Positions 2,035-27,129 of a DNA stretch of 64,000 bases are shown here, piece after piece; positions within the stretch are counted from its first letter, which is position 1; each line of letters begins with the position of its first letter. The stretch lies in NCBI RefSeq assembly GCF_000426645.1, contig NZ_AUFT01000005.1, forward strand, positions 124,001 to 188,000. The letters run 5' to 3'. Source of the DNA: Nakamurella lactea DSM 19367 (GTDB lineage: Bacteria > Actinomycetota > Actinomycetes > Mycobacteriales > Nakamurellaceae). The position numbers and the translations under genes are program-made. The notes beneath the pieces were generated by a model that worked only from the letters and a program-made list of their open reading frames with translations, did no database searches and was not told the DNA's origin.

Positions 2035-2040
2035 CGTTCC

Positions 2041-6963: not shown

Positions 6964-7006
6964 TGGACGCATCGGTCGCCGTGCCGGCCACGGACAGGGG
7001 TGTCGA

Positions 7007-9866: not shown

Positions 9867-11824
9867 TGACGATCCCGGCACCCGATCTCGACGACCGGAC
9901 CTTCCAGGACATCGTCGACGAGGCGAAGCGGTTGATCCCCCGGTACACCCCGGAGTGGACGAACCACAATCTCTCCGACCCCGGCGTCGCACTGATCGAG
10001 CTGTTCGCCTGGATGAGCGAAATGGTGCTGTTCCGGGTCAACCAGGTACCCGACCGGTTGTTCGTCCACTTCCTGAACCTGGTCGGGATCACGCCCTTCC
10101 CGCCATCGGTGGCCAGGGCCGACCTGACCTTCTGGTTGTCCGCGGTGCAGGACAGCCCGGTGAGTGTCCCGGCGGGTCTGCAGGTCACCACCGTGGCCGA
10201 TGCCAGCGGTGACCCGGTGGTCTTCACCACCAACTCGGAACTGCTGATCACCCAGCCGACGCTGCGGGCCGCCCTCACCACGGACGCCGAGGCCGATCAG
10301 CTGGTCGATGTGTACGACGATCTCCGATTCCCCGGCGCTTCCGTGGTGTGCTTCACCTCGGTGGGCGAACGCGGGCACCTGATCCCGGGCGATTGCCTGA
10401 TCCTCGGGTTCGCCGAAAGTCTTGCCGGGATGGCCCTTCGGTTGTCCTTCGCGGCCACCGCCCGCGGTATCGGCGTTGATCCGGCCCGGCCGCCGCTGGC
10501 CTGGGAGGTATGGAACGGCGAGGCTTGGATCGCCACCGATGTGTTCTCCGACAGCACGGGTGGGCTCAACCGGGCGGGCGAGGTGGTGCTGATGGTCGGC
10601 CCCGAGCACGAACTGCTGACCCTGGGCCGGACCGCGGCGTATTGGTTGCGGGTGCGCTTGCTGCAGCCCGCGCCCGGCCAGCCGACCTACCAGGAGTCGC
10701 CCCGGATCGAGGATCTCGCGGTGGCCGCGCTCGGGGCGACGGTGGCGGCGGAACATTCGTCGACGGCGGTCCGCGAGGTGCTCGGTCGCTCCGACGGCAG
10801 CCCTGGCCAGGAGTTCGTCGTCGGCTTCCCGCCGGTGCTGCCGCGGCGGGCCGGCGAGACCGTGGTGGTGACCGACGCCGGGAATCCGGTGGAATGGACC
10901 GAAGTGGAGGACTTCTCCCGGTCGACGGCAACCGACCCGCACTTCGTCTGGGAGTCAACCAGCGGGGTGGTCCGGTTCGGCCCCCGGCTGCGCTATCCCG
11001 ACGGCTCGGTCCGCCAGCACGGCCGGATCCCGCGCGACGGCACCGAGATCGCGGTGTCGGGTTACCGGCACGGTGGCGGTTCGGCCGGCAACGTCGGGTC
11101 GCGAACGTTGACGGTGATGCGGTCGGCGGTGCCGTACGTCTCCGGGGTGGTGAACCTGCGCGGCGCGGTCGGTGGGGTGGACGGCGAATCCGTTGCCGAG
11201 GCGAAGATCAGGGGACCGCTGACGCTGCGGACCGGTCAGCGGGCCGTGACGGCTGGGGACTTCGAACGGCTGACCCTCGAGTCGTCGATCGAGGTGGCAA
11301 GGGCCAGGTGTCTGCCGTCGGCGACACCGGGCGGTCCGGTCCGGCTGCTGGTGGTTCCCGCGGTCCGCACGGATCCGGCGACCCATCAGCTCGACGATTT
11401 CGCGCTCAGCGCGCCGCTGTTACGCCGGATCACCGAACACCTCGACGCCCATCGGATCGTCGGGACTGCGGTCGAGGTGGGAACGCCGTTCTACCAAGGT
11501 GTCTCGATCGCCGCGTTGGTCCACGCCCCGGCCGGGCGGCCGATGGCGCTGGTCCGGCAGCGGGCGATGGCGGCATTGACCCGCTACATCCATCCGCTCA
11601 CCGGCGGCGCCGACGCTGCCGGCTGGCTGTTCGACGCGGACCTGAACGCGGCGGCACTGGCCCAGCTGCTGGAGAGCGTGGAAGGCATCGACCGGGTCGA
11701 CGAGGTGCAACTGTTCGAGTACGACCTGCGCACCGGGCGGCGGATCGGTGCCGGCCGGGACATGATCCGGCTGGACCGGCACTCGCTGTTCCTGTCGGGG
11801 CCGCATCGGGTCGTGGTGCGATGA
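9863..11824 (+). CDS. Baseplate wedge protein, gp6/J-like (Afp11-like)
   Basis: 653 residues from ATG 9863 (MMTIPAPDLDDRTFQDIVDE); a second in-frame ATG at 9866 is possible, and GAGGAG at 9854-9859 serves either. The N-terminus has the gp6/J-like signature IPRYTPEWTNHNLSDPGVAL and LFAWMSEMVLFRVNQVPDR. The middle carries TVVVTDAGNPVEWTEVEDFS and WESTSGVVRFG, and the later part has the J-like AVTAGDFERLTLESS motif. These proteins form the wedge ring around the spike. The following junction holds a 38-codon mini-ORF rather than tail protein I directly. Confidence 0.92.
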   Translation: MMTIPAPDLDDRTFQDIVDEAKRLIPRYTPEWTNHNLSDPGVALIELFAWMSEMVLFRVNQVPDRLFVHFLNLVGITPFPPSVARADLTFWLSAVQDSPVSVPAGLQVTTVADASGDPVVFTTNSELLITQPTLRAALTTDAEADQLVDVYDDLRFPGASVVCFTSVGERGHLIPGDCLILGFAESLAGMALRLSFAATARGIGVDPARPPLAWEVWNGEAWIATDVFSDSTGGLNRAGEVVLMVGPEHELLTLGRTAAYWLRVRLLQPAPGQPTYQESPRIEDLAVAALGATVAAEHSSTAVREVLGRSDGSPGQEFVVGFPPVLPRRAGETVVVTDAGNPVEWTEVEDFSRSTATDPHFVWESTSGVVRFGPRLRYPDGSVRQHGRIPRDGTEIAVSGYRHGGGSAGNVGSRTLTVMRSAVPYVSGVVNLRGAVGGVDGESVAEAKIRGPLTLRTGQRAVTAGDFERLTLESSIEVARARCLPSATPGGPVRLLVVPAVRTDPATHQLDDFALSAPLLRRITEHLDAHRIVGTAVEVGTPFYQGVSIAALVHAPAGRPMALVRQRAMAALTRYIHPLTGGADAAGWLFDADLNAAALAQLLESVEGIDRVDEVQLFEYDLRTGRRIGAGRDMIRLDRHSLFLSGPHRVVVR

Positions 11825-11937
11825 GTGGGCGCGTAGGCCCACACGACGTGGGACGAAGCCGAACGTCGTTGGGACGAACGAATAATGTTGCCGGTCGGGG
11901 TGCCTGCGCGAGGGACGAGCGGCAGGGGCCACGATGA
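11821..11937 (+). other. Mini-ORF / dispersed repeat at gene junction (38 codons)
   Basis: An ATG at 11821 overlaps the baseplate gene's stop (ATGA) and the frame ends in TGA at 11935-11937, overlapping the ATG of tail protein I. The peptide begins MSGRVGPHDVGRSRTS and ends GRGACARDERQGPR. Its last 45 bases match the 3' part of the mini-ORF at 52276-52353 at about 39 of 45 positions by hand count. It is therefore a member of the junction repeat family, not a CIS gene. Whether it is translated is unknown; both overlaps would allow coupled re-initiation. Confidence 0.6.
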
Positions 11938-12662
11938 GCGACGACCAGTGGGCCGAGCCGCCGCCTGCAGAACCGCCGGCGGCGGAGGCCGGTCCCGGCC
12001 ATGATCTGGTCGAACCCGTTGCCGGGGCAGAGATTCTGACCAGGCCCGCACCGGGTGCGACCCTGCCCACCGACGCGGCCGGCTGGCCGGCGGTGACGGC
12101 ACCGCGCCGCGACGCCCGGGTCGGGGCGCCACCGCGTCATCAGCAATGGCTCGTCAACCAGCTGCCGGTGGGCATGCTGCAGACCGACTTCTTCGTCCGC
12201 TTCGTCTCGATCTTCCAAGAACTCGGCGAAACTCTCATGCAGGACGCGGATCTGCTCGAGCACGTCCCTGATCTCACCGTATCGCCGACACCGATGCTGT
12301 CGGCGTTGGCCGGCTGGATCGGCGTCGATGCGGTCGATCAGTCGCTGCCCGACCATCTGCAGCGACTGATCCTGGCCAGCTCCGCGCGCGCCCTGGCGCG
12401 CCGCGGCACCGCTAGGGGCCTGCGCGAGTATCTGGCCATGCTGTCCGGTGCCCCCGCCGAGGTGACGGACGGCGGTGGCATCTGGGCCGAGGGCGAGGCC
12501 CCCGCCGATGTCGGCTGGCTGCGGATGAATATCCAGGGCACCGGGCACCTTTCCGAGGACGAATTCGTCGCGATGATCCGCGACGAGATTCCCGCGCACG
12601 TTCGTGCCGAGCTGTGGATCGGCGACCGCAGGGTGCTGAATACCGCCGAGGAGGACCGATGA
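11934..12662 (+). CDS. CIS baseplate tail protein I (gp7/Afp12-like)
   Basis: 242 residues. After ~60 Ala/Pro-rich residues the protein matches the phage tail protein I family: WLVNQLPVGMLQTDFFVRFV, FQELGETLMQDADLLEHVPD, SALAGWIGVDAVDQSLPDHL, LARRGTARGLREYLAMLSG, and a C-terminal IRDEIPAHVRAELWIGDRR. In eCIS it links the wedge to the fibre/cage periphery and is smaller than T4 gp7. The stop overlaps the zinc-ribbon gene's ATG (ATGA at 12659). Confidence 0.87.
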   Translation: MSDDQWAEPPPAEPPAAEAGPGHDLVEPVAGAEILTRPAPGATLPTDAAGWPAVTAPRRDARVGAPPRHQQWLVNQLPVGMLQTDFFVRFVSIFQELGETLMQDADLLEHVPDLTVSPTPMLSALAGWIGVDAVDQSLPDHLQRLILASSARALARRGTARGLREYLAMLSGAPAEVTDGGGIWAEGEAPADVGWLRMNIQGTGHLSEDEFVAMIRDEIPAHVRAELWIGDRRVLNTAEEDR

Positions 12663-13258
12663 CGAACCCGAGACCTGTGGTGCCGGAGGATCTACCGGTG
12701 GAGCTGCCACCGCTGCATCCGCTGCCCCCGCTGCATCCGTTGCCGCCGCTCGGATCGGGGTCTGCGGCCACCCTGCTGACAGCTGCGGTCGCCACCGCGA
12801 CCGACGATGCCGAACTCGGCAACGAGGAACTGATCACCTGTCCGGAGTGCGGCGAGATGGCCACGGTCGACACGGCGCGCCGTCGTGCCGACGACTTCTG
12901 CCGGAACTGTGACTACCCGCTGTTCTGGGCGCGCAGCGCGGTGATCCTGCCCAGCGGCCAGGAGACGGGAGCCTCGCTGCGCCGGTTGCCGGGCACCGTC
13001 GGGCGGGCCGCGACGGCCGCCCTCAACTGCCCGCACTGCAACGAACCCAACTCGCCGATCGCCCTGGTCTGCATCCGCTGCGGCGGCGACATGCACCCGG
13101 TGGCGCCACCGGAGCCCGAACCGGTACCGGAGCCGGTATTCGTTCCGGCGCCGCTGCCCGAGCCGGAGGTCGTCCAGGACCGGTTCTGGTGGATCCTGGC
13201 GTCCGCCCTGGCGCTGTTGCTGGTGATCGCCGCCATCGTCTGGATCCTGCAGGCCTGA
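12659..13258 (+). CDS. Zinc-ribbon protein with C-terminal membrane anchor
   Basis: 199 residues; the ATG overlaps the stop of tail protein I. The first 35 residues are Pro/Leu/His-rich with a PLHPLPPLHPLPPL repeat. Two zinc ribbons follow: Cys 61, 64, 81, 84 (CPECGE and CRNC) and Cys 124, 127, 138, 141 (CPHC and CIRCGGDM). A PEPEPVPEPV linker leads to one hydrophobic span at about 176-198 that ends the protein (ILASALALLLVIAAIVWIL). With no signal sequence this predicts a tail-anchored inner-membrane protein with cytoplasmic zinc ribbons. Co-transcription with the baseplate genes suggests a membrane-docking or assembly role for the CIS; this is inference. Confidence 0.8.
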   Translation: MTNPRPVVPEDLPVELPPLHPLPPLHPLPPLGSGSAATLLTAAVATATDDAELGNEELITCPECGEMATVDTARRRADDFCRNCDYPLFWARSAVILPSGQETGASLRRLPGTVGRAATAALNCPHCNEPNSPIALVCIRCGGDMHPVAPPEPEPVPEPVFVPAPLPEPEVVQDRFWWILASALALLLVIAAIVWILQA

Positions 13259-13383: not shown

Positions 13384-16300
13384 CTAGGTCATCGGTACCT
13401 CCTTCACGCCGTTGATGCCGGCCGTCGCCGTCACCGTTGCCGTTCCGGTGTAGTCCTTCCCGGCGCTCGTCCAGGCCAGCTTGTAGGTGTGGGCACCGGT
13501 GGCTGCACTCAACTCCAGATAGAGACCGGTGAGCCTGGTGACCGTGATGGCGGTCGCTCCCTCGGTGACCGTGATGCCGGTGAAGACCTTCTGAGTTCCG
13601 GACGTCGGTTGCAGCAGGACTGTCGCGGCAGTCGCGGTGGTCTGGGCGACCGCGGTGGGGGTGAGTACCGTCAGCCCGGCGTTCACCGACTGGCCGGCCG
13701 CCACGACCGAATAGACCGTGCCGCCCACCGAACCGCTCACCGCGACGTGGTAGTTGGGAGTCGGGGAGAGCCCGGTGAACATGGCATTACCGTGCGAGTC
13801 AACGGTTTTCGTTGAACCCGCCGACCCGTTGTCCGGCAGCAGCGTCACCGTACTGCCGGCCGGCAGCGGTGCGCCGTTGCCGACCGGGCGGACGATCACG
13901 GTGCCGGTGGTGGTCGCCGTCAGGGTGGCCGACAACGCCTGCGGCGGTCCGGCCGTGAGCACCTGATCCTCCAGGACGTCCAGGTAGGAAGTGCCGCCGC
14001 TGGTGCGGCTCACCGCAATGTCGTAGGTGCCGGGGGTGATGCCGGTGAGCAGGACGGTGCCGTCGGACCGGACCGTCGGCAGCGTCGGGTTGGCCGGGTC
14101 GGCCGGGATGAGCCGGACGGTGGCTCCGGTGACGGCGGCCGCCGGACCGTCGACGGTCAGCGCTATCGTGGCGGTGGTCGTTGCGTCCAGTACCACCGGG
14201 ATGTCCGCCGAGATGCCCGCCGGGAACACGTGATCGGGCAACACCTTTTGGTAGTATGTGCCGCCGGACTGCCAGTGCACGATGATCGCCCGGGTACCCG
14301 GGGTGACGTCGGACAGCACGACCGCGCCGTTGGCAGCGACGGTCGGCCAACTGGCGTGATTCGGATCGGCCGGGAACAGCTCGACGGTGGCACCGGCCGG
14401 AAGGTTGCCGGAGACCGCGACGCTGGTGGTCAACCTCAGGGTGGACGCGGTGTAGCCGAAGGATCCGGTGATCGTGTGGTTGGTCGAGCCGTCGGCGATG
14501 GTGAGGCTGCCGGCGGTCGCGGCGGCGGCGAAGACGTCGCCGGCGACCGGGTTGGTGGCGGCCAGCGAGTAGGCACCCGTCGGGACGATCTGGGTGGTCC
14601 CGTTGGCCGCCGACTGACCACTGGGGATGGTGACCGACCCGGCGAAAACAGTTGTCCCACCGCTCGTCACGGTGACCGACATGGCCCGAGCGACCGAGTC
14701 CGGGGCACGGTTGGCCACATCCGCAAGCGCGACCCGCGGGATCAACGAGTAACCGGTGAAGGCCACCGTGTTGTTCTTGGTGGCGTCGAGCGTCACCGAC
14801 TCGTCGTCTAGATGGGCGTTGGCACCGGCCAGCCTGAATTTCCAGGCTCCCGGGCTCAGGCAGGTCGGGGTGCCAACGGACAAGGTCGGGTCGGTCGGGC
14901 CGGGAGCCGCTCCCTGGAAGGCCCTTACCGATCCGCTACCGGGACTGCCGTCGAGGGTCAGCGTCGCGGTAACCGCCGCCGCCGTGAACCCGAGCGTGCC
15001 GGACACCGCCTTCGGGTCGACGGAACCGGCGGCCGCGCCGTTCGGGACGGCGATGGTGAAACCGGGGAAGCCACCGGACGGTGCCGTCCAACCGTCGCCG
15101 AGGCCGGTCAGATCCGGCGCCCAGCTGTAGGTTCCGGCCGGCAGCAACACGTTCGCCGTCGCGCTGTTTCCGCTGACCGTCGCCTGGACAGTGACCGAGG
15201 CGTTGGTGCCGTCGGTGCGGGTCACCGTGATCGGCAGGGTCCCGTTGATCGGCGACTGGTCCGTGCAGTCGGTCTTGTTCCACGACGCCGTCAGTGTCGC
15301 CAACCCCTGGTGGAGCAGCGTCGTCTGGCTCTGGGTCGTGCCGCCGGTGGTGGCAGTGACGGTGAACGTGCTGCCGGTGGCCCGGAATCGAGCGGGTAGT
15401 GCGCCGTCGATGCCGGTCTGTTTCGTGGTGGTCGGCTGCCAATCCCCGGTGGCCAGCGGTTGGTTCAAGGAGGCGGTGAACGGCCCGGCCGGCGCCCCGG
15501 CCACCGGAATACCGGTCAGCGGATCCACCGGCTGGCCGACCGCTGCCGCGGTTTGCGTCAGGGTCAGTTCGGTGCCGGCCAGATTCGCCGTGGTCGCACC
15601 GGCCGGCCCCTTGGCGGTGGTCTGCACGGTCAGGTCGACGGTCCGGGCGGCGCGGGTGAGGTTCGCCGTCACCAGCGACGGTGCCGGGTTGGCCGCCCGG
15701 ATCAGGGTGATCTGCGGACTGACGAAGGTGTCGTAACCGGCCGCCGTCACCTGGACGTAGTACAAGCCGTCGGGAATGCCGGTGAATTGCAGTTCGGTCG
15801 CCGGGCCGGCCGGCGGCCAGTTCAGTTCCAGCGGATCACCGCCGAAGTCCTTGGCGATCACGAACAATCCGTTGACGTCGTACTGCATCAGGTCGACGGT
15901 GGCCGCCCCCGTCAGCGGCACACCGCCCGGCCCGTTCACCACCACCCGCTGGTTGTTCGTCTTCAACTGCAGGAACAGCTGCACCAGCAACGGAGTGGTC
16001 TGCCCTTCTCGCACCTCGATCTGGGTGCTCACCGGGTTGAACAGTGGAAGGTCCGGTTGCGGTGCCACCTGTACCTGGTAGGTGCCTGGATTCACCGCCG
16101 GGAAGTCGATGGCCGCGTCGTCACCCTCCGTCGCGCAGCTGGGTAGCTGGCCCTTCTGGTAGTTGCAGGTGTAGGTGCCGTTGGGACCGGAGAGGGTCGC
16201 CGTCATCGGTTGCATGATGGGTGTCTTGGTCGGGTCGTCGACGGACGCGAGCACGATCTGCACCGGTACCGGGTTGATCGGCAGGGTGACCTGCAGTGCC

Positions 16301-19300
16301 CCGCCGGTGATGGTCAGGTCGCCGGTGGCGTCCGACAGGCCGTAGGTCCCGCCCGGATTGCCCGACAGCAGCACCGTGCCGGTCGCCGTCCCGTGGCCAG
16401 ATCTCGTTGCCGTCACCAGGTATCGGCCGGCGAGCAGCCCCTCGTCGACCTTGGTCCCGGTCAGTACGAGGCCACCGAAAGCATTCGTCACGCCGCTGAA
16501 CGTCGGCGAGCCGGCCACCGGATTGCCGTCGGCGTCCGCCGCCCGGAGCGCCACCGCGACGGACCCGAGCGCGTTCGTGAAGGGAGCCTGGCCCGGCGGC
16601 GTGACCGACTCGACGGTGGCGAAGCTGATCGAGCCGATCGCGGTGAGCCGCACGGTGCAGGTGGTGGTGCCGCCGGGGTGCGGGATCAGCCCGGTGCTGC
16701 CGGCGGCATCGCACTGCACGGCAGGGGAGTTGCGGTCGTAGTCGACGTCGAACTTGTAGCCGGCGGCCTGGGTGTGCAGCAGATAGGTCGCGGTCGGCAG
16801 CGCGACCATTCCCTTGATGGTGACGGTGTTCCCGATCGCGGTGGTGCTGGCCTTCGCCGGGGCAGTCAGCGTGTTGCCGGTCAGCGTGACCAGGACGTCG
16901 GGAACCGGATTGCCGGCGGAATTGATGAAGTCGAACTTCAGGTCGGTGCGCTGGGTCATCTCGACGTGCGGGTCGCACGTCGAGCTGTCGCCCCCGCAGA
17001 CAAAGGTGGCGCCAGAGGATTGGTCGAAGCCGGCGAGGATGGCCGAGACGCGGTACGTGCCCGGACGGATCACGTTGGGCGGGAGGTCATCCTGTTTCCA
17101 GCTGAGCGCGGCGGTGGTCGGGTCGACGCCGACGTCGACCGAACCGCCGTCCGGCGGGATGACGTTGACCTTCGTCGCGCCGGCCGGAAGTCCGGCCGGA
17201 TTGGTGCTGACGGTCGCTCCCGCCGCCAGCCGGGGGAAGGGCTTGAGGGTGCGGTTGACCGGGTCGCAGCCGGCCACGAAGTCGGCGCCGCACTTGATCG
17301 TGACGGTGGCTCCGGCGTAGCCGTTCAGATTGAACTGGAAGGTGTAGCTCCCCTGGGCCGCCAGGCCATCCCTTGGCTGGGCGTCGTCCCGGAAGTTGAA
17401 GGCGTAGGTATAGGCGACGATCGCGTCGCCGTCTCCACGGACGGCGTTCGGATCGCCGACCGAGACCGTGATGGCGCCGACGCCGGTGGCTGTGGTGCTG
17501 ACGAACGTCGTCAGCAGGTCGTTGGAATCGACTCCGCTGGGCAGCGGCGCCGGGACCCGGAGCGTGCCGCTGATCTTCGCCAGCTGCCGCAGCCGGAGCG
17601 GGCCGGGCGTCGAGGTGCCGGTGGCGACCATCACGCAGGTCTTTCCCAACGCGCACAACAGGTCTGCGTCACCGCTGACGAAGCCGGTCTGTTCGACATG
17701 CAGCGAGTAGCGGCCCGGAACGGCCTGACCCGGAGCGGCGAGGGAGGCGTCGGTGAAGGTCAGGTTGCCGCCGCTGTCGCTGCGCACCGTGACTGCCCCG
17801 GCGCCGGCCGGCGCCCGGGTGACGGTGACCTTGGCATCGAGCATCGAGACCAGCGGGTCGCCTTCCGGCAACTCCTGCCTGATGGCCTGGGAGCCGACCG
17901 GTGACGGGCTGGCGTCCACGATCACCACCGGCAGGTTCTTCACCGGACCGCTGCCGCCGACCAGCGTCGCGGTCGCCTGGTACTCCTTGGTTCTGGTGTC
18001 CGCGGCCGCGACGCCCACGGTCACCGGCAGCACCACCAGGGAGGCCGGTGTGCCGTCCGGATCCGACATCACCGCGGTCGCCGATCTGGGCACCGAGGGA
18101 CAGTCGGGGCTGGTCAACGCCGGGCCGCCGGTGGCCGGCCAGTTAGCCGGCAGGATTGCGAAACATCCGTTGCCTGCGGTGGTGACCGTGCCCGCGCCGG
18201 TGACCGGGGTCTGCCCGTCGAACCCGACGACGCCGCTGACGGTGACCTTCGCGCCGCCGACGCTCACGGTTCGTCCGTCCACCGATGTGGTCACCCGGCC
18301 GACAACGGCCCCGATCGGTGAGGTCAACACCATGGTGACCGACTCGGTCTGGTTGAGCCCGACCGGCAGGCTGATCCGGGCGCTGCCACCGGCTTTCGCG
18401 GTCACCGTGTAGGTACCGTTCAACCCGCCCACCTGCAGCGTGCCGGCCGGCCCGGTGGTCCCCGCCCGTCCGATGGCGAACGGCGGCGGTGCCTGCCCGG
18501 TGGGGGTGAAGGTGACGGCGGCACCGGGTTGCGGGGTCAGGGCGACCGTCTTCAGGTCCGGCGTCAACACGGTGACGGTGGCCCGACCCAGCCGGTCGAG
18601 CACGGCGTCGTACCGGGCGTCGCCGCCCAGTTGCAGTTGCACGGTGGAGGTGGCCACCGGCAGGAACTCCCGGTCGGTGGTCAACACCCCGACCTGGTAG
18701 CTGCCATGCAGCAGCCCGACGATCTGATAGCTGCCGTCCTTGGCCGCGACCAGGGAACAGCGCACCGGCGCGCCGCCCGGGACGCTGCAGGACTTGCCGC
18801 TCGGCGTGCACGATGTCGGAGCCTTGGTGCCGGCCGGAACGGCGATCACGCAGCTCGGTGAGGACGGCGAGCCGACGTGGGTGGTGATCGTGCCGGATAT
18901 CAGACCCAATGGCTGCAACCGTATCTGCGGTGCGACGGTGATCTGGTTCTCGGCCACCTGGACCTGGGTGGTGGTCGTTTCGTAGCCGGGCGCCGAGATC
19001 GTCAACGTGTACAGCCCGGCCACCAGGCCGCGGTGCTTCGGGTCGTTCTTGGCCGGGATGACGTAGTCCTCGGCGGGTCCGGCGGTCGTGGGTACCACGT
19101 CCCGTTTGCCGTTGTCGTCGGCCGGATCAACCGGGACCGGCACCGTGACCTTGACCCGACACTCGACATCCGGCACCGGTGAACGGTCACAGGTGAGTGC
19201 GCTGTCGGTCGAGGCGTCGACGACCCGACCCTGGATGTGCGCGGTGGCCGCCAGTTCGATCGCCGCGTCGGCGGGCAGTCGCAGATCGGCCTGCGCCGTC

Positions 19301-21522
19301 CCGGCGGCGGTCACCGTGACGGTGGTGGAGGCCGGCGCCCGGCCGAAGGTCGAGGCGCTGAGCAGGTAGGTGCCGGGGGCCACGCCGGAGAACCGGAACC
19401 GCCCGGCCGGGGCCGAGGTGCTCATCGTCTTGTACGACACGGTGTCCCCGGTCAAGGTCAGACCGACCCCTTCGAGGCCGCCGCCGTCGTCGCCGACCGT
19501 CGATCCGGTCACGACGCCGGCCGCCGCCGCCAGGGACACGTCGACCCGTACCTGCCCGGTGTCCGGCGGGATGGTGACGGTCCTGACCTGATCGGTGAAG
19601 CCGGCGCCGGAGATCGTCATCGTGTACTCGCCGGGCGCCGGGAGGTCGGGCAGGACGAAGGCGCCGACCGGACCGGTGGTGACGGTTGTCGCGGTGCGGG
19701 TGATGCCGCCGTTGGTGATGGTGATGCCGATGCCGCCGAGTCCACCGACCCGGCCCAGTTCGTCGCGACCCGAAACCGTGCCGGTAACGGCGGCAACACC
19801 CGGTTTCATTGTCAGGTCGACCTTGCCCGCGCCGCCCGCGGTCAGCGTCACCAGGTGCGAGGTGGTGCCGAACCCGGGTGCGGACGCGGTGACCAGATAG
19901 GTGCCCGGTGTCGAAAGCCCGTCCGCAGTCCAGGTTCCCGGGGCGCCGGCGGCGGCGCCCCGGGTCGTTCCGGTCGGCGGCGACACGGTCGAGGTGGCCA
20001 GCGACACCGTCCCGTCGGTGATGCTGATCTCGGCCGCGCCGACCGGACCGTCCGGCCCGGTGACGGTTCCGGTGAGGCGTCCGGGGCCGGCGACCATGGC
20101 GACGTCCAACGGCACCCCGGCGGCCAGCGTTGCGGAGTTGATGATGAAACGCTGGGTCTGGAATCCGGCCTTCGCTAGGGTCAGCAGGTAGTAGCCAGGT
20201 CCGGTGATGCCGCCGATGGCGAAGGTGCCATCGGCGTCGGTCTCGGTGGACTGGGCCCCGTCGGGTCCCTCCGGCGCCAGCCGGACCGCCTCGGCGGGGA
20301 TCTTGCCGAAGGCCCCGGAGCCGGCCCGGAGCATGTCCGCAGTGGCCGTGTCGCCCGGTGCCGGGGCGGCCTGGACGTCGGCCGCCTCGATCAGGCTGGT
20401 CGGGCGCAGGCCGACCTGGACACCGGCCGGCGCGGCACCGGACACCGTGCCGGACAACGTGGTTCCGGGTTTGCTGCCGCCGCCCTTGCCGCCGTCGTTG
20501 CCGCCGGACTTGTCGCCGCCCGCGGTGCCGGCACCGGACTGCCCGGTGGTCGGTGCTGCACCCGCGCCACTCCCGGCGCCGCCGGCACCGGTGGTGGCCT
20601 CGGCGCCCGACCCGGAGGTGCCGGCGCCGGTGGTGCCACCGGTGCCCGAACCGCCGGTGCCGGTGCCGGGGGCGGTCGCGCCGGAGGTGGCGTTGGGCAC
20701 CGTGTTGCGGGCGGTGAACTGGTCGGAGAGCTTGGGAATGAACAGCAGCGCGGCGGCCGCCCAGACGGCCAGCACCAATGCGACCGCGGCGATCTTCATC
20801 GCCGCGCCGCGGATCAGCGGCCGGGCGTTGAGCGTGCCGTCGACCCGCTCGGGGGCGCCGTCGCCGCGGGCGGTGAGGGCGAAACTGTGCACCCCACCAT
20901 CGGTCAGCAGCCGCGGCCGGCGGACCCGGACACGGGCCTGCACGCTGACCGTGCGTCCGGCCGGGGCGAGGACCGTGTCGTCCTGCAGGTGCACCCACAC
21001 GCCGTGCGCAGCCTCGGCGGACAGGGACAGCGAGCGATCGCGGCGGCCGGGATTGGTGATGTGCAGCTGGACTTTCCGGCTGTTGACCGCCTCGGAGGTG
21101 GACGGGTCGATGGCCAGCGTCACCCTTTCCCGACCGTCGACCGCGAGGGTCGACTCGGCGATCCCCAGTACCGGGGCCGAGCCGGCGCCCGGCGGCGGCG
21201 TGGTCCCGCCGGGGCGGATCGGGGTGATCTCGGCGGCGATCACGAACGGGTACAGCGCGCTGAGCGATCCGCGTTCCGGGCTGACGGCGATGGCCAACTG
21301 GACGGATTCGCCCGGCTGCAACGGCCCGATCCGGATCGGCTCGGCGACCCAGCTGCTGTCCAGCCCGAGAACGGTGACCGTGAGCATGGCCGGGGTGAAC
21401 CCGCGGTGGCGGACACCGACATCGACCATGCTGGTCCGACCGGCCGAGCAGGCGATCTGCGGCGCGACCCGGACCTCAGGGGCGTCGGCTCGGGACGTCG
21501 GGCGCGAGGAAGGGCCGGTCAC
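13384..21522 (-). CDS. Giant bitopic membrane protein with CPD-repeat array (2,712 aa)
   Basis: The GTG at 21522 overlaps the stop of the preceding - strand gene (GTGA). Residues ~15-235 form two Ig-like beta domains with no signal peptide (APEVRVAPQIACSAGRTSMV, VQLHITNPGRRDRSLSLSAE). A single span follows at about 242-262 (IAAVALVLAVWAAAALLFIP) preceded by Arg/Lys, so the N-terminus is predicted inside. A Gly/Thr/Ser linker (~270-350) leads to more than 2,300 residues of repeated carboxypeptidase-regulatory-like domains, each ~80-100 residues with a core such as G-x-[FYW]-x-[FLI]-x-x-[LV]-x-P-G-x-Y-x-[LV]-x-[VA]. Later repeats near 1,100-1,700 contain scattered Cys (CSVPGG, CGADFVAGC). It is the last gene of the DUF4255-led operon. 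It is probably a long extracytoplasmic stalk tethered to the CIS side of the membrane. Confidence 0.83.
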   Translation of the reverse strand: MTGPSSRPTSRADAPEVRVAPQIACSAGRTSMVDVGVRHRGFTPAMLTVTVLGLDSSWVAEPIRIGPLQPGESVQLAIAVSPERGSLSALYPFVIAAEITPIRPGGTTPPPGAGSAPVLGIAESTLAVDGRERVTLAIDPSTSEAVNSRKVQLHITNPGRRDRSLSLSAEAAHGVWVHLQDDTVLAPAGRTVSVQARVRVRRPRLLTDGGVHSFALTARGDGAPERVDGTLNARPLIRGAAMKIAAVALVLAVWAAAALLFIPKLSDQFTARNTVPNATSGATAPGTGTGGSGTGGTTGAGTSGSGAEATTGAGGAGSGAGAAPTTGQSGAGTAGGDKSGGNDGGKGGGSKPGTTLSGTVSGAAPAGVQVGLRPTSLIEAADVQAAPAPGDTATADMLRAGSGAFGKIPAEAVRLAPEGPDGAQSTETDADGTFAIGGITGPGYYLLTLAKAGFQTQRFIINSATLAAGVPLDVAMVAGPGRLTGTVTGPDGPVGAAEISITDGTVSLATSTVSPPTGTTRGAAAGAPGTWTADGLSTPGTYLVTASAPGFGTTSHLVTLTAGGAGKVDLTMKPGVAAVTGTVSGRDELGRVGGLGGIGITITNGGITRTATTVTTGPVGAFVLPDLPAPGEYTMTISGAGFTDQVRTVTIPPDTGQVRVDVSLAAAAGVVTGSTVGDDGGGLEGVGLTLTGDTVSYKTMSTSAPAGRFRFSGVAPGTYLLSASTFGRAPASTTVTVTAAGTAQADLRLPADAAIELAATAHIQGRVVDASTDSALTCDRSPVPDVECRVKVTVPVPVDPADDNGKRDVVPTTAGPAEDYVIPAKNDPKHRGLVAGLYTLTISAPGYETTTTQVQVAENQITVAPQIRLQPLGLISGTITTHVGSPSSPSCVIAVPAGTKAPTSCTPSGKSCSVPGGAPVRCSLVAAKDGSYQIVGLLHGSYQVGVLTTDREFLPVATSTVQLQLGGDARYDAVLDRLGRATVTVLTPDLKTVALTPQPGAAVTFTPTGQAPPPFAIGRAGTTGPAGTLQVGGLNGTYTVTAKAGGSARISLPVGLNQTESVTMVLTSPIGAVVGRVTTSVDGRTVSVGGAKVTVSGVVGFDGQTPVTGAGTVTTAGNGCFAILPANWPATGGPALTSPDCPSVPRSATAVMSDPDGTPASLVVLPVTVGVAAADTRTKEYQATATLVGGSGPVKNLPVVIVDASPSPVGSQAIRQELPEGDPLVSMLDAKVTVTRAPAGAGAVTVRSDSGGNLTFTDASLAAPGQAVPGRYSLHVEQTGFVSGDADLLCALGKTCVMVATGTSTPGPLRLRQLAKISGTLRVPAPLPSGVDSNDLLTTFVSTTATGVGAITVSVGDPNAVRGDGDAIVAYTYAFNFRDDAQPRDGLAAQGSYTFQFNLNGYAGATVTIKCGADFVAGCDPVNRTLKPFPRLAAGATVSTNPAGLPAGATKVNVIPPDGGSVDVGVDPTTAALSWKQDDLPPNVIRPGTYRVSAILAGFDQSSGATFVCGGDSSTCDPHVEMTQRTDLKFDFINSAGNPVPDVLVTLTGNTLTAPAKASTTAIGNTVTIKGMVALPTATYLLHTQAAGYKFDVDYDRNSPAVQCDAAGSTGLIPHPGGTTTCTVRLTAIGSISFATVESVTPPGQAPFTNALGSVAVALRAADADGNPVAGSPTFSGVTNAFGGLVLTGTKVDEGLLAGRYLVTATRSGHGTATGTVLLSGNPGGTYGLSDATGDLTITGGALQVTLPINPVPVQIVLASVDDPTKTPIMQPMTATLSGPNGTYTCNYQKGQLPSCATEGDDAAIDFPAVNPGTYQVQVAPQPDLPLFNPVSTQIEVREGQTTPLLVQLFLQLKTNNQRVVVNGPGGVPLTGAATVDLMQYDVNGLFVIAKDFGGDPLELNWPPAGPATELQFTGIPDGLYYVQVTAAGYDTFVSPQITLIRAANPAPSLVTANLTRAARTVDLTVQTTAKGPAGATTANLAGTELTLTQTAAAVGQPVDPLTGIPVAGAPAGPFTASLNQPLATGDWQPTTTKQTGIDGALPARFRATGSTFTVTATTGGTTQSQTTLLHQGLATLTASWNKTDCTDQSPINGTLPITVTRTDGTNASVTVQATVSGNSATANVLLPAGTYSWAPDLTGLGDGWTAPSGGFPGFTIAVPNGAAAGSVDPKAVSGTLGFTAAAVTATLTLDGSPGSGSVRAFQGAAPGPTDPTLSVGTPTCLSPGAWKFRLAGANAHLDDESVTLDATKNNTVAFTGYSLIPRVALADVANRAPDSVARAMSVTVTSGGTTVFAGSVTIPSGQSAANGTTQIVPTGAYSLAATNPVAGDVFAAAATAGSLTIADGSTNHTITGSFGYTASTLRLTTSVAVSGNLPAGATVELFPADPNHASWPTVAANGAVVLSDVTPGTRAIIVHWQSGGTYYQKVLPDHVFPAGISADIPVVLDATTTATIALTVDGPAAAVTGATVRLIPADPANPTLPTVRSDGTVLLTGITPGTYDIAVSRTSGGTSYLDVLEDQVLTAGPPQALSATLTATTTGTVIVRPVGNGAPLPAGSTVTLLPDNGSAGSTKTVDSHGNAMFTGLSPTPNYHVAVSGSVGGTVYSVVAAGQSVNAGLTVLTPTAVAQTTATAATVLLQPTSGTQKVFTGITVTEGATAITVTRLTGLYLELSAATGAHTYKLAWTSAGKDYTGTATVTATAGINGVKEVPMT

Positions 21523-24125
21523 GGTGTCCCTCCGGTGCTGCCGGCCGTTCCGGTGGCGGCCGGTGGCGGGATTGCGGTGGTCGGGGAGACGTTGCCGTCG
21601 CCGACGGACGTGGTCGACTCGACGGTCAGGTTCAGCACGCCGGCCTTGCTGGCCGGCAGCACCAGGGTGGCCGATCCCAGCGCGCCGGCGGTCGCCGACC
21701 TGACCTGCACGACGTAGGCCTGCGGTGCGTCGACGTTCTCGAACACGTAGTCGCCCTTGGCATCGGTCACCGTGCTCCGGTAGACCTGCGCCGGGTACTG
21801 CGACGATTCGAACAGGTCCACCTGCAAACCGGCGACAGAGCCGCCGGTCCGATCGGTGATCCGGCCGGAGATCCCAGCACCCGGTACCAGCACCGGGTCG
21901 TAGGTGAGACTCTGTCCGGCGATCAGCGTGATCGTCACCGTCGTCGGGCTGGTGCCACGCCGGCTGGCGGACAGCGTGTAGGTGCCGGGCTTCACGCCGG
22001 CGATCAGGTACTTGCCGGCGCCAGCGGCTGGGACGGAGGCACTGGAAACGGTGTAGGTGTCGGTACCGGAGGACAGCGTGATGACGGCCTCGCCGCCCGG
22101 TGACGATCCACCCGCTGCGTTGCGTTGACTGACCGTGCCGGACACCACCGCGAACGCCGACGTCATCCCGACGGTGATGCCGCCGGCACCTGTGCTGGGA
22201 TTGCCGTTGCGGTCCAGTGCCACCGAAACGGTCTGGGACTGCAGATCATCCCGGGAGAAGGTCACGGTGTAGGTGCCAGGCAGCGGGAGACCGGCCACCA
22301 TCCAGGCGCCGACGTCGCCGGTCGACTGGGTCACCGTCGTCACCGTGGTGTCGCCGGAGGTGAGCGTCACGCCGACCCCGCCGGCCGGCGCCTGGTCGGC
22401 GAGCGTGTTGACGTGGCCGGACAGGGTGCCGGCCGAATGGCTCAGGGTGAACCGGACGTCGGTGAGCTTCTGACCGGCGGCCAGGGTCAGGGTCGAGGTC
22501 TGCGTGCCGAAGCCCGGCGCCGTCACCGTCACCGTGTACGTGGCAGGTGTCACCAGGCCGCGGACGGTGAACGTGCCCTTCTTGCCCTGGGTCAGGGTCA
22601 GCGTCTGGACGGTGGTCGACCCCGTGGTGGCGGTGACCAGGGCCTTGACCACCGGCCCGTCCGGCCCGATCACACTCCCGGTGATCAGACCGTCGCCGGT
22701 GCGCAACCGCAGCTGCAAATCGGATCTGGTCTCGCCGCCGGCCAGATCGATCCGCTGGGTCTCGGGGGCGAAGCCGGCCTTGGTCACCACCAGCTCGTAC
22801 ACCGCCGGAGAGGCGATGTCGGACAACGAGAACCGGCCGTCGGAGGCGACCGGGATCGAGTCGACCAGTGCGCCCGGCGCGGCCGCCTTGGAGCCGGCAA
22901 CGGCCGGCAACCGATCGGCCGGCACCTGGATGCTGACCACCGCGCCGGCGACGTCGTCGCCGAGCACCTCACCGGAGACGGTGGCCGGCAGCCCGCCGAG
23001 CGAGACCGACAGATCCGGCGACTTCTCCCCGGTCTGCACGTCGATCTCCTTCGCCTCGGCGCCGGTGAGCGCGCCGGGATACCAGACCTCGGCCAGACCG
23101 GCGCCCCTGAACCGCACCTTGTAGGCGCCGGCGGGCAGCGAAGCGACGGTGAAACTGCCGTCGTCGGCAGTGGCCGTGCTGGCGACAGGTTGGGTCAGCG
23201 AGGCTGCGGAGAACACCTCCACGGCGACGCCGGCCGCCGGTGCACCGGTGAGAAGCGTGATGGTGCCGCCGATCTCCGAGCTCCCGGCGCCGCTGCCGAC
23301 GTTGTCGGCGGCGGCGGCGACCTGCAGCGCCAGATCGCGATCGGCCGCCGAGACGCCGACCAGCCGGGACAGCGCGATGGTGATCACGGTGGCGAACACG
23401 CTGACCGCCACCAGCAGGCTGAGCATCGACAGCACGCCGCGACCGATCCTCGGCTTCTGCATCATGGTGCCGTTGGCCAGCGGTTCCACCGGCACCGCAA
23501 CGGGTGTGCCGTCCGGCGCTGACGAAGGCCGGCCCGGTCGGGCCGGCGCGGCGGCGACGCCGAACGGGCGGACCACCGGTGTGCCCAGCCAACGCCGCCG
23601 GGCCGATGCCCGCAGGTCGGCGATGGCATGCTCGCCCGGCGCCAGGTGCAGCACCGGCGGGATCACTTCGAACTGGATCTTGTCTTCCGGGTCGAGCCCG
23701 ACCACCGAGGTCGCGATGGTGGTGTTGCCGGTGTTCTCCGCGACCAGGCCGAAGTGGCCGGTGTGCCCGCAGATCACCGTCATTGGTGACAGCGAGAGCC
23801 GCAGCGCCTCCTGGGCGGGCACGGCCAGCTCGATCTCGGCAACCGCGATCGCCTGCGGCGGAGTGAGTTCGCGCACCTGAACGGCGATCCGCCGGTCACC
23901 GGCCCCGATCCCGTTCGGGATCTCGATCCTGGCGGTCACCGTCTGGGAGGTGTCCGGGAACAGCGACAGGTTCTCGGCCTCCAGGGTGACCCAGCCCGGG
24001 TCGGCGCCGAGCACCCGCAGGTGGTAGCCGCCGATGATGTCGGCGGTGTTGGTCACCGTGACACTGATCTCGAACGGAATCCCGGCAACGAGTTCGACTC
24101 GCTCCGGATCGACCTGCACCCGCAT
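21519..24125 (-). CDS. Bitopic membrane protein with six CPD-like repeats (868 aa)
   Basis: The ATG lies two bases past the stop of the preceding gene. Residues 1-~190 are two Ig-like domains (MRVQVDPERVELVAGIPFEI, LSPMTVICGHTGHFGLVAEN). A Pro-rich linker and a basic KPRIGRG precede the single span at about 230-252 (VLSMLSLLVAVSVFATVITI), giving N-in orientation. About six CPD-type beta-sandwich repeats follow (DGSFTVASLPAGAYKVRF, KGTFTVRGLVTPATYTVTV, KGDYVFENVDAPQAYVVQV). The head is a clear paralogue of the 804-residue neighbour: both begin MRV and share an NTxxIIxG/NTGQVIDG strand and an LFPDS/T turn. Tandem duplication is therefore likely. Membrane-anchoring of the CIS is inferred from operon membership. 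Confidence 0.83.
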   Translation of the reverse strand: MRVQVDPERVELVAGIPFEISVTVTNTADIIGGYHLRVLGADPGWVTLEAENLSLFPDTSQTVTARIEIPNGIGAGDRRIAVQVRELTPPQAIAVAEIELAVPAQEALRLSLSPMTVICGHTGHFGLVAENTGNTTIATSVVGLDPEDKIQFEVIPPVLHLAPGEHAIADLRASARRRWLGTPVVRPFGVAAAPARPGRPSSAPDGTPVAVPVEPLANGTMMQKPRIGRGVLSMLSLLVAVSVFATVITIALSRLVGVSAADRDLALQVAAAADNVGSGAGSSEIGGTITLLTGAPAAGVAVEVFSAASLTQPVASTATADDGSFTVASLPAGAYKVRFRGAGLAEVWYPGALTGAEAKEIDVQTGEKSPDLSVSLGGLPATVSGEVLGDDVAGAVVSIQVPADRLPAVAGSKAAAPGALVDSIPVASDGRFSLSDIASPAVYELVVTKAGFAPETQRIDLAGGETRSDLQLRLRTGDGLITGSVIGPDGPVVKALVTATTGSTTVQTLTLTQGKKGTFTVRGLVTPATYTVTVTAPGFGTQTSTLTLAAGQKLTDVRFTLSHSAGTLSGHVNTLADQAPAGGVGVTLTSGDTTVTTVTQSTGDVGAWMVAGLPLPGTYTVTFSRDDLQSQTVSVALDRNGNPSTGAGGITVGMTSAFAVVSGTVSQRNAAGGSSPGGEAVITLSSGTDTYTVSSASVPAAGAGKYLIAGVKPGTYTLSASRRGTSPTTVTITLIAGQSLTYDPVLVPGAGISGRITDRTGGSVAGLQVDLFESSQYPAQVYRSTVTDAKGDYVFENVDAPQAYVVQVRSATAGALGSATLVLPASKAGVLNLTVESTTSVGDGNVSPTTAIPPPAATGTAGSTGGTP

Positions 24126-24127
24126 GA

Positions 24128-26542
24128 TCAGCCACCACCGTTGCTGACGGCGAAGTCCTGCGTCGCACTGCTTCCGGCGGCGACGGTGACCAGCGCGGTG
24201 TGCGGCTCGCCGTCGGGTCCGGTCGCGGTCACCGTGTAGGTGCCGGCGGCGAGCCCGCTGATCACGTAGCCGCCGGCCGGGACCACTCCGGCGCTGGCCG
24301 CGGAGGTGACCGGCCAGGTTCGGATCCCGTCGGTCGCCACCACCGTGGCGTCGGCGACCGGGGCGCCGCCCGGACCCAGTATCCGGCCGGTGATCCGGCC
24401 CATCGAGCTGGTCATGGTGACAGTGAGCGGATCGATCGCCTTCGCACCGTCCAGGGTCACCGGCACGGTCGTGTCCAGGTATCCGGCCAACGTGAAGGTG
24501 AGTGTGTAGGAGCCCGGATTCGGCAGCTTGTCGAGGGCGAAGGACCCGACCTCGCCGGACGTCAGGGTGGTCGTCCCTGGGAGGTCGGCGCCGCCGCCGA
24601 CGGTCACCGTCGCTCCGCCCAGACCGGTGCCGTCTGCAGCGACCAGCCGGCCGCTGACCTGGCCGGTGCCCTTCACCAATTCGACCTTCTGCCCGGTCAG
24701 CTTCTGGCCTGGCCCGAGATCGACGACGACGCTGCTCGGCGCGTAGCCCTCGGCGGTCACCGTCAGCACGTAGGTGGCCGGGGTCGGCAGATCACCGATC
24801 ACGAATTGGCCGGGGGTGCCGGTGGTCGGGGTGCCGGTGGTGACGTCGACCCCCCGGACCGTGGTGCTGACGGTCGCCTGGCCGACGCCGCCAGAGGCGT
24901 CGGTGACCGTCCCGGAGATCTCGCCGAGGCCCGAGTTGAGTACCACATTCGGCTGGATCCGGTTGGCCCCGCCGTCCACGGTGACCTGGGCGCTCGACGC
25001 CTGATAACCCTTGGTGGTGAACGACAGTTCGTAGGTTGCCGGCGCCGGGAGCTTCTTCAGGGTGTATTTGCCGGCGGCATCGGTCTTCGCCGTCGCCACC
25101 GGCTTGCTGGTCGAGGCGGCGCCGATCGGCCGGGCCGACACCACGGTCACCCGCCGTTCAACGGTGTCGCCGGGGTCGACCGTCCCGCTGATGGTGGCCG
25201 GCTTTCCGCTCAGCACCATGTCCGTTCCGGTGATCACCGATCCGGTGCCGACCTGTAGTTGCTTCGCCTTACCGGCGGAGGCGGTGCCCGGGAAGTACAC
25301 CGGGGTGAATCCGTCCGCCGAGAACCGCAGCAGATACGGGCCGGGGAACAGTCCGGAGATCTCGTAACTGCCGTCGGCCTGGGATGCCGCCGAGCTGGCC
25401 ACCACCAGCTTGCCGGTACTGGTCGGGCGCACCGCCTCCACCAGGATCCGGGCGATGCCAGCGCCGTCGGCCTTGGCGGTGATCGTCCCGCCGATGCCGC
25501 CGGCGGTCCCCGGCGGCAGGCTGCCGTCCTTCGGCAGCGCGTCTGCCGGGGCCTCGGCGCGGACCGGACCCGCTGCCGCCGCAGCGGTTCCCGCGCCCCT
25601 CCCGGCAGCGGCCGGCGCCGCGGCCGCCGCACCGTCGGACGGGTTCTGCTGGGCGGCCAGCGCCGGCGCCGGAGCGACGAAGTACGACGGGGGTGCGGAC
25701 TTGGTCAACGGGTCGCCCCCGAAGACCTGTCCGATGCCGAACAGGAAGACCGCCGCCCAGACGGCGATGATGGCCAGCAGGATCAAGGCGGTCATCAGCC
25801 CACGGGTCAGCCAGGGCCGCTGCCGCACCGTCAGCGGCCGGCCCGCGGTCAGCGGTTCGGCGTCCGATCCGGTTCCGGAATCGGCGGGCTCGGGCAACGG
25901 GTCCAGCGGGGCACCTACCGGAACCGGAAGCCGCGGGGCACGCCCGGGGGCGACGACATGACCGGTTGCGGTGACGTTGATCGGCCGGTCAAGTTCGCTG
26001 CCGAGCAGCATCCGCGGAGCACGGGCACTGATCACCACGTCCACCGCGCCGCCGGCCGGGACCGTCGCCGCCGACGGCTCGGTCCGGCAGTCGACGGCCC
26101 GTTCCGGATCGGTCGCCTGCAGGGACACGTCAAGGGTCACGTTGCCGCGGTTGTGCACCGTCAGCACGAACCGCGCGGTCCGGTGGGTGCGGACCACCTG
26201 CGGCCGGCAGGTCAGTTCCATCGCGGCCGACTGTGGGACCTTGAGGTCCAGGTCGAGGTAGCTGGGCGCGGTATCGCTCTGCCGGGAGCGGACTTCCACC
26301 GTTACCGGATGCACGCCGGCCGGGAACTCGTTCGGAACCCCGACCACCAGCGTCATCCGACCGGCGGAGTCGGGGAACAGTGGGAGCACCGCCGGTCGGG
26401 TACTGACGTGCCGATCGGGCAGCCCGACGATCCGCGCCGTGACACCGTCGATCACCTGCCCGGTGTTGACCACGTCGAGACCGACCTCGGCGGTGCCGCC
26501 GGGCTTGAGGTCGATCAGATCTGTGTCCGCGCTGACCCGCAT
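24128..26542 (-). CDS. Bitopic membrane protein with five CPD-like repeats (804 aa)
   Basis: The ATG at 26542 follows the DUF4255 stop by two bases. Residues 1-~195 form two Ig-like/COG1470-like domains (DLIDLKPGGTAEVGLDVVNT, RFVLTVHNRGNVTLDVSLQA). A Pro-rich linker and RQRPWLTRG lead into one span at ~249-271 (LMTALILLAIIAVWAAVFLF), predicted N-in. After an Ala/Pro linker come five CPD-type repeats (DGSYEISGLFPGPYLLRFSA, AGKYTLKKLPAPATYELSF, GGYVISGLAAGTYTVTA). Proteins with this head-span-beta-array plan occur in actinobacterial CIS loci; the reported Streptomyces membrane partner CisA (from memory) is a bitopic protein of this general sort. A docking role for the contractile particle is inference. 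Confidence 0.83.
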   Translation of the reverse strand: MRVSADTDLIDLKPGGTAEVGLDVVNTGQVIDGVTARIVGLPDRHVSTRPAVLPLFPDSAGRMTLVVGVPNEFPAGVHPVTVEVRSRQSDTAPSYLDLDLKVPQSAAMELTCRPQVVRTHRTARFVLTVHNRGNVTLDVSLQATDPERAVDCRTEPSAATVPAGGAVDVVISARAPRMLLGSELDRPINVTATGHVVAPGRAPRLPVPVGAPLDPLPEPADSGTGSDAEPLTAGRPLTVRQRPWLTRGLMTALILLAIIAVWAAVFLFGIGQVFGGDPLTKSAPPSYFVAPAPALAAQQNPSDGAAAAAPAAAGRGAGTAAAAAGPVRAEAPADALPKDGSLPPGTAGGIGGTITAKADGAGIARILVEAVRPTSTGKLVVASSAASQADGSYEISGLFPGPYLLRFSADGFTPVYFPGTASAGKAKQLQVGTGSVITGTDMVLSGKPATISGTVDPGDTVERRVTVVSARPIGAASTSKPVATAKTDAAGKYTLKKLPAPATYELSFTTKGYQASSAQVTVDGGANRIQPNVVLNSGLGEISGTVTDASGGVGQATVSTTVRGVDVTTGTPTTGTPGQFVIGDLPTPATYVLTVTAEGYAPSSVVVDLGPGQKLTGQKVELVKGTGQVSGRLVAADGTGLGGATVTVGGGADLPGTTTLTSGEVGSFALDKLPNPGSYTLTFTLAGYLDTTVPVTLDGAKAIDPLTVTMTSSMGRITGRILGPGGAPVADATVVATDGIRTWPVTSAASAGVVPAGGYVISGLAAGTYTVTATGPDGEPHTALVTVAAGSSATQDFAVSNGGG

Positions 26543-26544
26543 CG

Positions 26545-27129
26545 TCAGCCCCGGGACTCGGAGATGGGAACCGACGCCGGCTTGGGCGCGACCATCGCCT
26601 CGATCCGCTGGACCGGAGTGGCCAGACCCGCGAACGGCATGCCGTCGACGGCGGTCGTCACGACGAGTTCGAACGACGGTTTCAGGGTCCCGCCGATGGT
26701 CGACCAGACGTCCTTCGCCCGGTTGCTCTCCTGCGAGGCGATGGCCAGCTGTACCCGCGAATCGAGCTCGACCGGAAGGTGCTCGACCGGCATCACCTGG
26801 ATGCCCAACAGGCAGGTGAAGACGTCGCCGATCAATTGGTGCTCGTCGCGGATGCTGCCGGTCCAGGCACTGACCAGATAGTGCAGGTCCAGCATCGGCA
26901 GCGGCTGGCGTCGCTGGCGCTGCCCGTCGACGGTGCGTTCGGCAGGCGGACGCGGCTGCTGCGTCGATCGACCGATCCCGAACAGGAACAGGTTGACGGT
27001 GATCCGGCTCAGCTGCGCCGACCAGGTTCCGGACGGCGGGTCGAAGGAGACGTCGCCGACCGTGGACGGCAGCGGAAGGGCGGCCCGGACCAGGTTTTCC
27101 AGGGCCGAGTCGATCGTCGGGATGATCAC
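26545..27129 (-). CDS. DUF4255 CIS protein (Pvc16/Afp16 N-terminal-like tail terminator)
   Basis: 194 residues from a GTG at 27129 (VIIPTIDSALENLVRAALPL), which is where family similarity begins; the open frame extends upstream but that part has no family character. Features of DUF4255 are the N-terminal helix, VSFDPPSGTWSAQLSRITVN, LFLFGIGRST, LDLHYLVSAWTGSIRDEHQL, IGDVFTCLLGIQVMP, and a C-terminal domain with LKPSFELVVTTAVDG. Afp16-type proteins cap the distal end of sheath and tube and set tail termination. It heads the - strand operon with three giant membrane proteins, tying them to the CIS. Confidence 0.88.
   Translation of the reverse strand: MIIPTIDSALENLVRAALPLPSTVGDVSFDPPSGTWSAQLSRITVNLFLFGIGRSTQQPRPPAERTVDGQRQRRQPLPMLDLHYLVSAWTGSIRDEHQLIGDVFTCLLGIQVMPVEHLPVELDSRVQLAIASQESNRAKDVWSTIGGTLKPSFELVVTTAVDGMPFAGLATPVQRIEAMVAPKPASVPISESRG

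What the first reader, a model, noticed from the sequence alone, without database searches (positions are those of the whole stretch)
13384..27129. Three giant bitopic CPD-repeat proteins in one operon with a CIS tail-terminator gene
Seen: a DUF4255 gene is followed without gaps by genes for 804, 868 and 2,712 residues. Each has an N-terminal Ig-like pair, one span with basic residues on the N side, then 5, 6 and more than 20 beta-sandwich repeats. Known: Streptomyces CIS particles are cytoplasmic and depend on a bitopic membrane partner (CisA, from memory). Inference: this organism expanded such a partner into three paralogous anchors whose outer stalks could cross the cell wall, a membrane-docked firing platform with graded lengths. 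The 2,712-residue member is far beyond what I know for this role.
Basis: partly seen in the sequence, partly recalled or inferred. Interest (0 to 1): 0.78.

Follow-up and report, generated by a model that had tools for sequence, protein, structure and literature searches.

The report
Membrane stalk trio beside injection machine
Next to the genes for a phage-tail-like injection machine, this soil bacterium carries three related membrane proteins with a small head inside the cell and a stalk outside of 5, 6 or many domains; the trio and its 5-and-6 domain counts are shared across the actinobacterial phylum, which suggests that the machine works together with a measured scaffold in the cell envelope.

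Summary
Behind a DUF4255/Pvc16 gene lie three abutting genes (804, 868, 2,712 aa), each with two Ig-like domains, one membrane span with basic residues on its N side, and CPD-type beta-sandwich repeats: exactly 5, exactly 6, and at least 15 (room for about 25).

The three are not an expanded CisA. Their heads match the Streptomyces CIS-linked family that includes Sco4256-4258 (hhalign E 3e-16) and show no similarity to CisA. A separate zinc-ribbon/membrane-span gene (12659-13258) occupies the CisA position and resembles it. Nor did this organism invent the trio: DUF4255-A-B-C is conserved in Nakamurella, in at least five other families of its class and in five genomes of other classes. A has 5 repeats, B 6, and C is giant (up to 3,916 aa).

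No signal peptide, basic residues on the N side and strictly paired tail cysteines (27 of 27 tails even) place heads inside and stalks outside. In 297 genomes the head is confined to CIS-positive ones (40 of 48 versus 0 of 249).

Best reading: membrane-resident partners of an intracellular CIS, with wall-spanning stalks. Docking is inferred; published work calls the Streptomyces relatives effectors. New variant of a known kind.

The parts
26545..27129 (-). DUF4255/Pvc16-type gene (CIS tail terminator family), first gene of the four-gene block; the longest ORF runs to 27333
   Evidence: Pfam Pvc16_N E 3.5e-29; only copy in the genome
24128..26542 (-). Protein A, 804 aa: head 25790-26542, membrane span 25733-25789, five CPD repeats 24170-25495
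   Evidence: orthologues with five repeats in all triads
21519..24125 (-). Protein B, 868 aa: head 23427-24125, membrane span 23370-23426, six CPD repeats 21645-23273
   Evidence: head structure model pLDDT 89
13384..21522 (-). Protein C, 2,712 aa: head 20794-21522, membrane span 20737-20793, outer tail 13387-20736 with at least 15 CPD-type repeats between 15688 and 20334 and one further near 2453-2516 aa, 20 paired cysteines
   Evidence: head homologous to B head by profile comparison
12659..13258 (+). CisA-like protein: Pro-rich N part, two zinc ribbons with RLPGT motif, C-terminal membrane span, no outer domain
   Evidence: Pfam zinc ribbons, span, conserved in all triad clusters, finds CisA-like proteins of Streptomyces clusters
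34..999 (+). Sheath protein, part inside the window (gene begins upstream)
   Evidence: Phage_sheath_1 and 1C
1046..2683 (+). Tube 1 (1046-1525), tail-assembly-chaperone-like gene (1522-2034), tube 2 (2201-2683)
   Evidence: Phage_T4_gp19 E 2e-24 and 3e-27; phrog_508 E 3e-7
6986..9866 (+). CIS_tube/LysM protein (6986-7666), VgrG-like spike (7663-9417), gp25 baseplate wedge (9417-9866)
   Evidence: Pfam
9863..12662 (+). Baseplate J (9863-11824) and Tail_P2_I (11934-12662)
   Evidence: Pfam

Best explanation
A, B and C are three ancient paralogues of the actinobacterial CIS-linked membrane-protein family that includes Sco4256-4258. Each is a type II single-pass protein: a cytosolic head of two PapD/ASH-like Ig domains, one span, and an extracytoplasmic stalk of 5, 6 or many beta-sandwich domains. 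They are the envelope-side partners of a CIS kept inside the cell, working beside a separate zinc-ribbon/TM protein that resembles CisA. The heads would face the particle, the two short stalks would be about as long as the cell wall is thick, and the long one would reach beyond it. Most likely they hold or receive the particle at the membrane and couple it to the wall when it fires. Shown here: family, topology signals, operon, fixed repeat counts, restriction to CIS genomes. Inferred: contact with the particle, docking, stalk length.
For: Heads homologous to Streptomyces CIS-linked heads and all three to each other. Head restricted to DUF4255-positive genomes and physically linked. Type II topology: no signal peptide, positive N flank, paired even cysteines only in tails. 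Fixed 5 and 6 repeats across families and classes. Relatives' tails carry wall- or surface-type domains: ricin lectin, ChW, Invasin_D3/Big_1. Genes abut DUF4255 and in four genomes of other classes follow baseplate and CisA-like genes on one strand. In S. coelicolor, deletion of sco4256-4258 abolishes CIS-dependent death while particles still assemble (PMC10066040).
Against: No interaction with any CIS component was tested. In S. coelicolor the triple mutant has mostly empty tubes and Sco4256 was found in particle preparations (PMC10066040, PMC10020575), which fits cargo. The operon partner is the tail terminator, at the end away from the baseplate, not an obvious docking element. Topology evidence is from sequence only.
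Confidence: 0.55

Rival explanations
1. They are CIS effectors: cargo loaded into or onto the particle and released on firing, the head being a loading domain and the span and tail the acting part. This is the published proposal for Sco4256-4258.
For: Published for the Streptomyces relatives: toxic in E. coli, empty lumens and no stress death in the triple mutant (PMC10066040); Sco4256 detected in purified particles (PMC10020575). Variable tails on a conserved head resemble effector families.
Against: No toxin or enzyme domain in any tail. Tails are disulfide-paired stalks and lectins that fit export by the cell. Fixed 5 and 6 repeats across classes are unlike fast-changing cargo. A different loaded cargo, Sle1, is reported for S. 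lividans (PMC13277306). Toxicity in E. coli is also reported for CisA (PMC12237407), so it does not mark cargo.
Confidence: 0.28
2. They are surface stalks or adhesins that share regulation with the CIS but do not touch it, for example for cell-cell contact or wall anchoring during development.
For: CPD repeats, ricin, ChW and Invasin_D3 domains are common in surface proteins.
Against: Strong heads are confined to CIS genomes, sit next to CIS genes, and have a conserved cytosolic pair of domains that an adhesin would not need.
Confidence: 0.12
3. One reading: three expanded copies of CisA made by this organism.
For: Same general layout (cytosolic N part, one span, outer C part) and the same cluster.
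Against: No sequence similarity to CisA-like proteins (hhalign 0.2%); ordered Ig head versus the largely unstructured CisA N part (PMC12237407); a separate CisA-like gene in the same cluster; phylum-wide distribution.
Confidence: 0.03

Closest known systems
Sco4256-Sco4258 family of Streptomyces class IId CIS (putative CIS effectors; PMC10066040, PMC10020575)
   Same: Homologous N-terminal head, one membrane span, variable C part, gene next to sheath and DUF4255 genes, restricted to CIS genomes
   Different: Streptomyces tails are about 190-235 aa with ricin or ChW domains; here they are 5, 6 or many CPD repeats, 530 to 2,450 aa, in a fixed trio of orthologous groups
CisA / Sco4242 (PMC12237407)
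   Same: Bitopic CIS-linked membrane protein with cytosolic N part
   Different: CisA has zinc ribbons, a disordered N part and a small outer domain; no similarity to the heads. Its likely counterpart here is 12659-13258, which lacks the outer domain
PapD-like / ASH / MSP Ig domains (pilus chaperones, CEP192, VAP-A) and WxLIP
   Same: Fold of the head domains
   Different: Fold only; no shared function shown
T6SS trans-envelope complex
   Same: A membrane partner for an intracellular contractile machine (analogy only)
   Different: No T6SS membrane-complex family appeared among the window proteins scanned; the architecture is unrelated

Membership tests
Sco4256-4258 family | Homologous conserved N-terminal head domain | tested here: met
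   hhalign 98.7%, E 3e-16 against Streptomyces heads; HMMs of A, B or C heads alone hit them at 1e-8 to 1e-25. S. coelicolor's own genes were not fetched; named loci of the genus were
Sco4256-4258 family | Single membrane span after the head | tested here: met
Sco4256-4258 family | Encoded in the CIS cluster and rare elsewhere | tested here: met
Sco4256-4258 family | C-terminal ricin-type domain (two of the three S. coelicolor members) | tested here: not met
   Tails are CPD repeats. The published family description has a variable C part that many homologues lack, so this does not define membership
Sco4256-4258 family | Toxic on expression; needed for CIS-dependent death | not testable with these tools
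   Needs expression and gene removal
CisA (Sco4242) family, for A, B and C | Sequence similarity to CisA | tested here: not met
   hhalign probability 0.2%
CisA (Sco4242) family, for 12659-13258 | Cys-rich zinc-binding region before the span, gene after the baseplate genes | tested here: met
   hhalign 79.6%, E 1.5e-5 over 51 columns of the second ribbon
CisA (Sco4242) family, for 12659-13258 | Conserved C-terminal outer domain of about 150 residues | tested here: not met
   The protein ends 2-4 residues after the span in all nine orthologues; so it is CisA-like, not filed as CisA
Contractile injection system cluster | Sheath, tube, spike, gp25, baseplate J and Pvc16 genes together | tested here: met
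Contractile injection system kept in the cytoplasm (Streptomyces type) | Particles not released; fire inside the producing cell | not testable with these tools
   Inferred from the CisA-like gene and the kinship of the heads only

The most novel reading that the evidence does not exclude
Actinobacteria share an undescribed CIS-linked envelope scaffold: three type II membrane proteins whose outer stalks have a fixed 5, 6 and many domains and act as graded rods across the cell wall, with cytosolic heads that receive the particle. The Streptomyces 'effectors' would then be short-tailed members of a docking or coupling family, not cargo.
Probability: 0.35. Interest if true: 0.8.

Novelty: new variant of a known kind. 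Interest (0 to 1): 0.6.

Why it matters
How a CIS kept inside a Gram-positive cell meets the envelope is open, and only CisA is known as a membrane partner. A phylum-wide operon that joins CIS genes to membrane proteins with invariant 5 and 6 repeat stalks gives concrete candidates. It also questions whether Sco4256-4258 are cargo. N. multipartita and S. coelicolor make it testable by gene removal and cryo-tomography.

Tried and rejected
CisA expansion: rejected. Chance repeats or a mis-called ORF: rejected by orthologues and Cys pairing. Heads in genomes without a CIS: only weak partial hits (best E 2.6e-9 and 4e-8) in about ten DUF4255-negative genomes. Structure of the last 768 residues of C from one sequence: pLDDT 37, uninformative. 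Toxin domains: none in Pfam or NCBIfam for A, B or C, none in the C-terminal part. PHROGs: nothing for the heads, DUF4255 or the zinc-ribbon protein. Fold comparison lists many PapD/ASH/MSP-like Ig proteins and WxLIP: a common fold, no function inferred. Literature: no held paper names Nakamurella together with a CIS, and none found describes this trio; only open-licence papers are held. Row L020 in alignment A2 was on the wrong strand and was dropped before any use. Two fragment coordinates were out of frame and were corrected.

Full report
WHAT IS THERE. The window is from a Nakamurella species: relative G002 in the same genus has a 6,060,298-bp chromosome, the exact size of N. multipartita Y-104T (PMC3035273). 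The plus strand carries a CIS core: sheath, two tubes, a tail-assembly-chaperone-like gene, LysM/CIS_tube, VgrG-like spike, gp25, baseplate J, Tail_P2_I, then a 200-214 aa zinc-ribbon protein with a C-terminal span. Converging on it from the minus strand are DUF4255/Pvc16 and three abutting genes A (804 aa), B (868 aa) and C (2,712 aa), with 2-nt gaps or a 4-nt overlap. Housekeeping genes flank the whole. The genome has one sheath and one DUF4255 gene.

ARCHITECTURE. Each protein has two Ig-like domains, one strong span and beta-sandwich repeats. The head of B folds confidently (mean pLDDT 89) as two Ig domains, a linker and a helix at 229-255. A and B heads are 29% identical (E 1e-28). The C head is remote by BLAST but aligns over 227 columns, span included, at profile level (E 1e-12). 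Repeats by an iterated profile: A 5, B 6, C 15.

TOPOLOGY. No hydrophobic stretch precedes the head. The N flank of the span carries about 3 K/R and almost no acid; the C flank 1.9 K/R and 1.3 acid (27 proteins). In 27 different tails with cysteines the number is always even. In C tails the gap within successive pairs has a median of 11 residues (90% at most 25), against 108 between pairs; heads often hold 1 or 3. This is what disulfides outside the membrane and reduced heads inside would give. It is indirect evidence, since these proteins are related. One C orthologue of 3,916 aa ends in 12 Invasin_D3/Big_1 domains and fn3.

CONSERVATION. DUF4255-A-B-C is present in nine genomes, eight of this genus and one of another family, though one contig ends inside C. 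It is also present in families f25, f28, f34 and f41 of the class and in five genomes of other classes. A has 5 and B has 6 repeats throughout in complete proteins (one B counts 7 in the last profile round); C has 4 to 18 detected, where low values include a short 848-aa C and a C cut by a contig end. In four genomes of other classes the genes run baseplate, zinc-ribbon/TM, DUF4255, A, B, C on one strand, so the inverted block in Nakamurella is probably derived (inference). A head tree gives separate A, B and C groups that each span the classes, with Streptomyces heads in a group of their own; only the long-branched G453_C falls outside the C group, and the deepest forks are weakly supported. 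The trio is therefore old, or moves as a unit.

LINK TO CIS. Among 61 relatives, all 16 head-positive genomes have DUF4255 and none of 39 DUF4255-negative genomes has a head (Fisher 4e-10). Among 297 genomes of the class, 40 have strong heads (E<1e-10, my threshold), all of them DUF4255-positive; 8 DUF4255-positive genomes lack one and 249 negatives have none (Fisher 6e-42). Genomes are not independent samples, so the p-values overstate. At the tool's looser threshold about ten DUF4255-negative genomes show weak partial hits.

WHICH FAMILY. HMMs built only from window-type A, B or C heads find them, and hhalign gives 98.7%, E 3e-16. This matches the description of Sco4256-4258: one span, a conserved chaperone-like N domain, a variable C domain with ricin in two (PMC10066040, PMC10020575). 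The heads share nothing with CisA. The zinc-ribbon/TM protein, in contrast, sits where CisA sits and finds the CisA-like proteins of two Streptomyces clusters, but has no outer domain. So here the outer mass sits on A, B and C rather than on the CisA-like protein.

HOW IT PROBABLY WORKS. Shown: family, topology signals, operon, fixed counts, restriction to CIS genomes. Inferred: the particle stays inside; the heads face it; at about 4 nm per domain (general knowledge) the stalks of A and B would be about 20-25 nm, close to a Gram-positive wall, and C would be 60-100 nm. The best-supported role is a membrane-resident partner that holds or receives the particle and ties it to the wall at firing. 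The published view of the Streptomyces relatives is that they are effectors: the triple mutant is death-deficient, its lumens look empty, and the proteins are toxic in E. coli. Against that stand the envelope-type tails, the report that CisA is toxic in E. coli too, and the finding of a different loaded cargo, Sle1, in S. lividans (PMC13277306). I cannot decide between the two from sequence.

VERDICT. Observation confirmed; interpretation partly supported; new variant of a known kind. The fixed 5/6/many stalks across the phylum are the notable part.

Noticed in passing
window 2680-6963 (+): A ~1,400-aa Ala/Pro/Ser-rich protein lies between tube 2 and the LysM gene, where Streptomyces clusters carry tape-measure-like genes; only its ends are conserved in relatives and no informative family matches.
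   Followed up: no
window 12659-13258 (+) and orthologues (L040, L041, L048, L193, L092, L101, L099, L100): Zinc-ribbon/TM protein with an invariant RLPGT motif and two CxxC pairs, conserved in all triad clusters; CisA-like without the outer domain.
   Followed up: partly
L053 13432-16266, L054 9925-12207, L051 12120-15053: Genomes G001, G002 and G012 hold a second, different CIS cluster whose head-type gene has several head domains in tandem and no clear membrane span.
   Followed up: no
L207 8108-19858 (+): A 3,916-aa C orthologue in another class ends in 12 Invasin_D3/Big_1 domains plus fn3, an adhesin-like extension.
   Followed up: partly
L041 9527-12073 (-): The C orthologue of G007 is only 848 aa, against 1,900-3,200 aa in its relatives; truncation, frameshift or assembly error not resolved.
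   Followed up: no
L211 8092-11823 (-), L212 10054-13770 (+): B orthologues with six CPD repeats and about 400 further tail residues of unknown type, containing two Cys in the tail.
   Followed up: no
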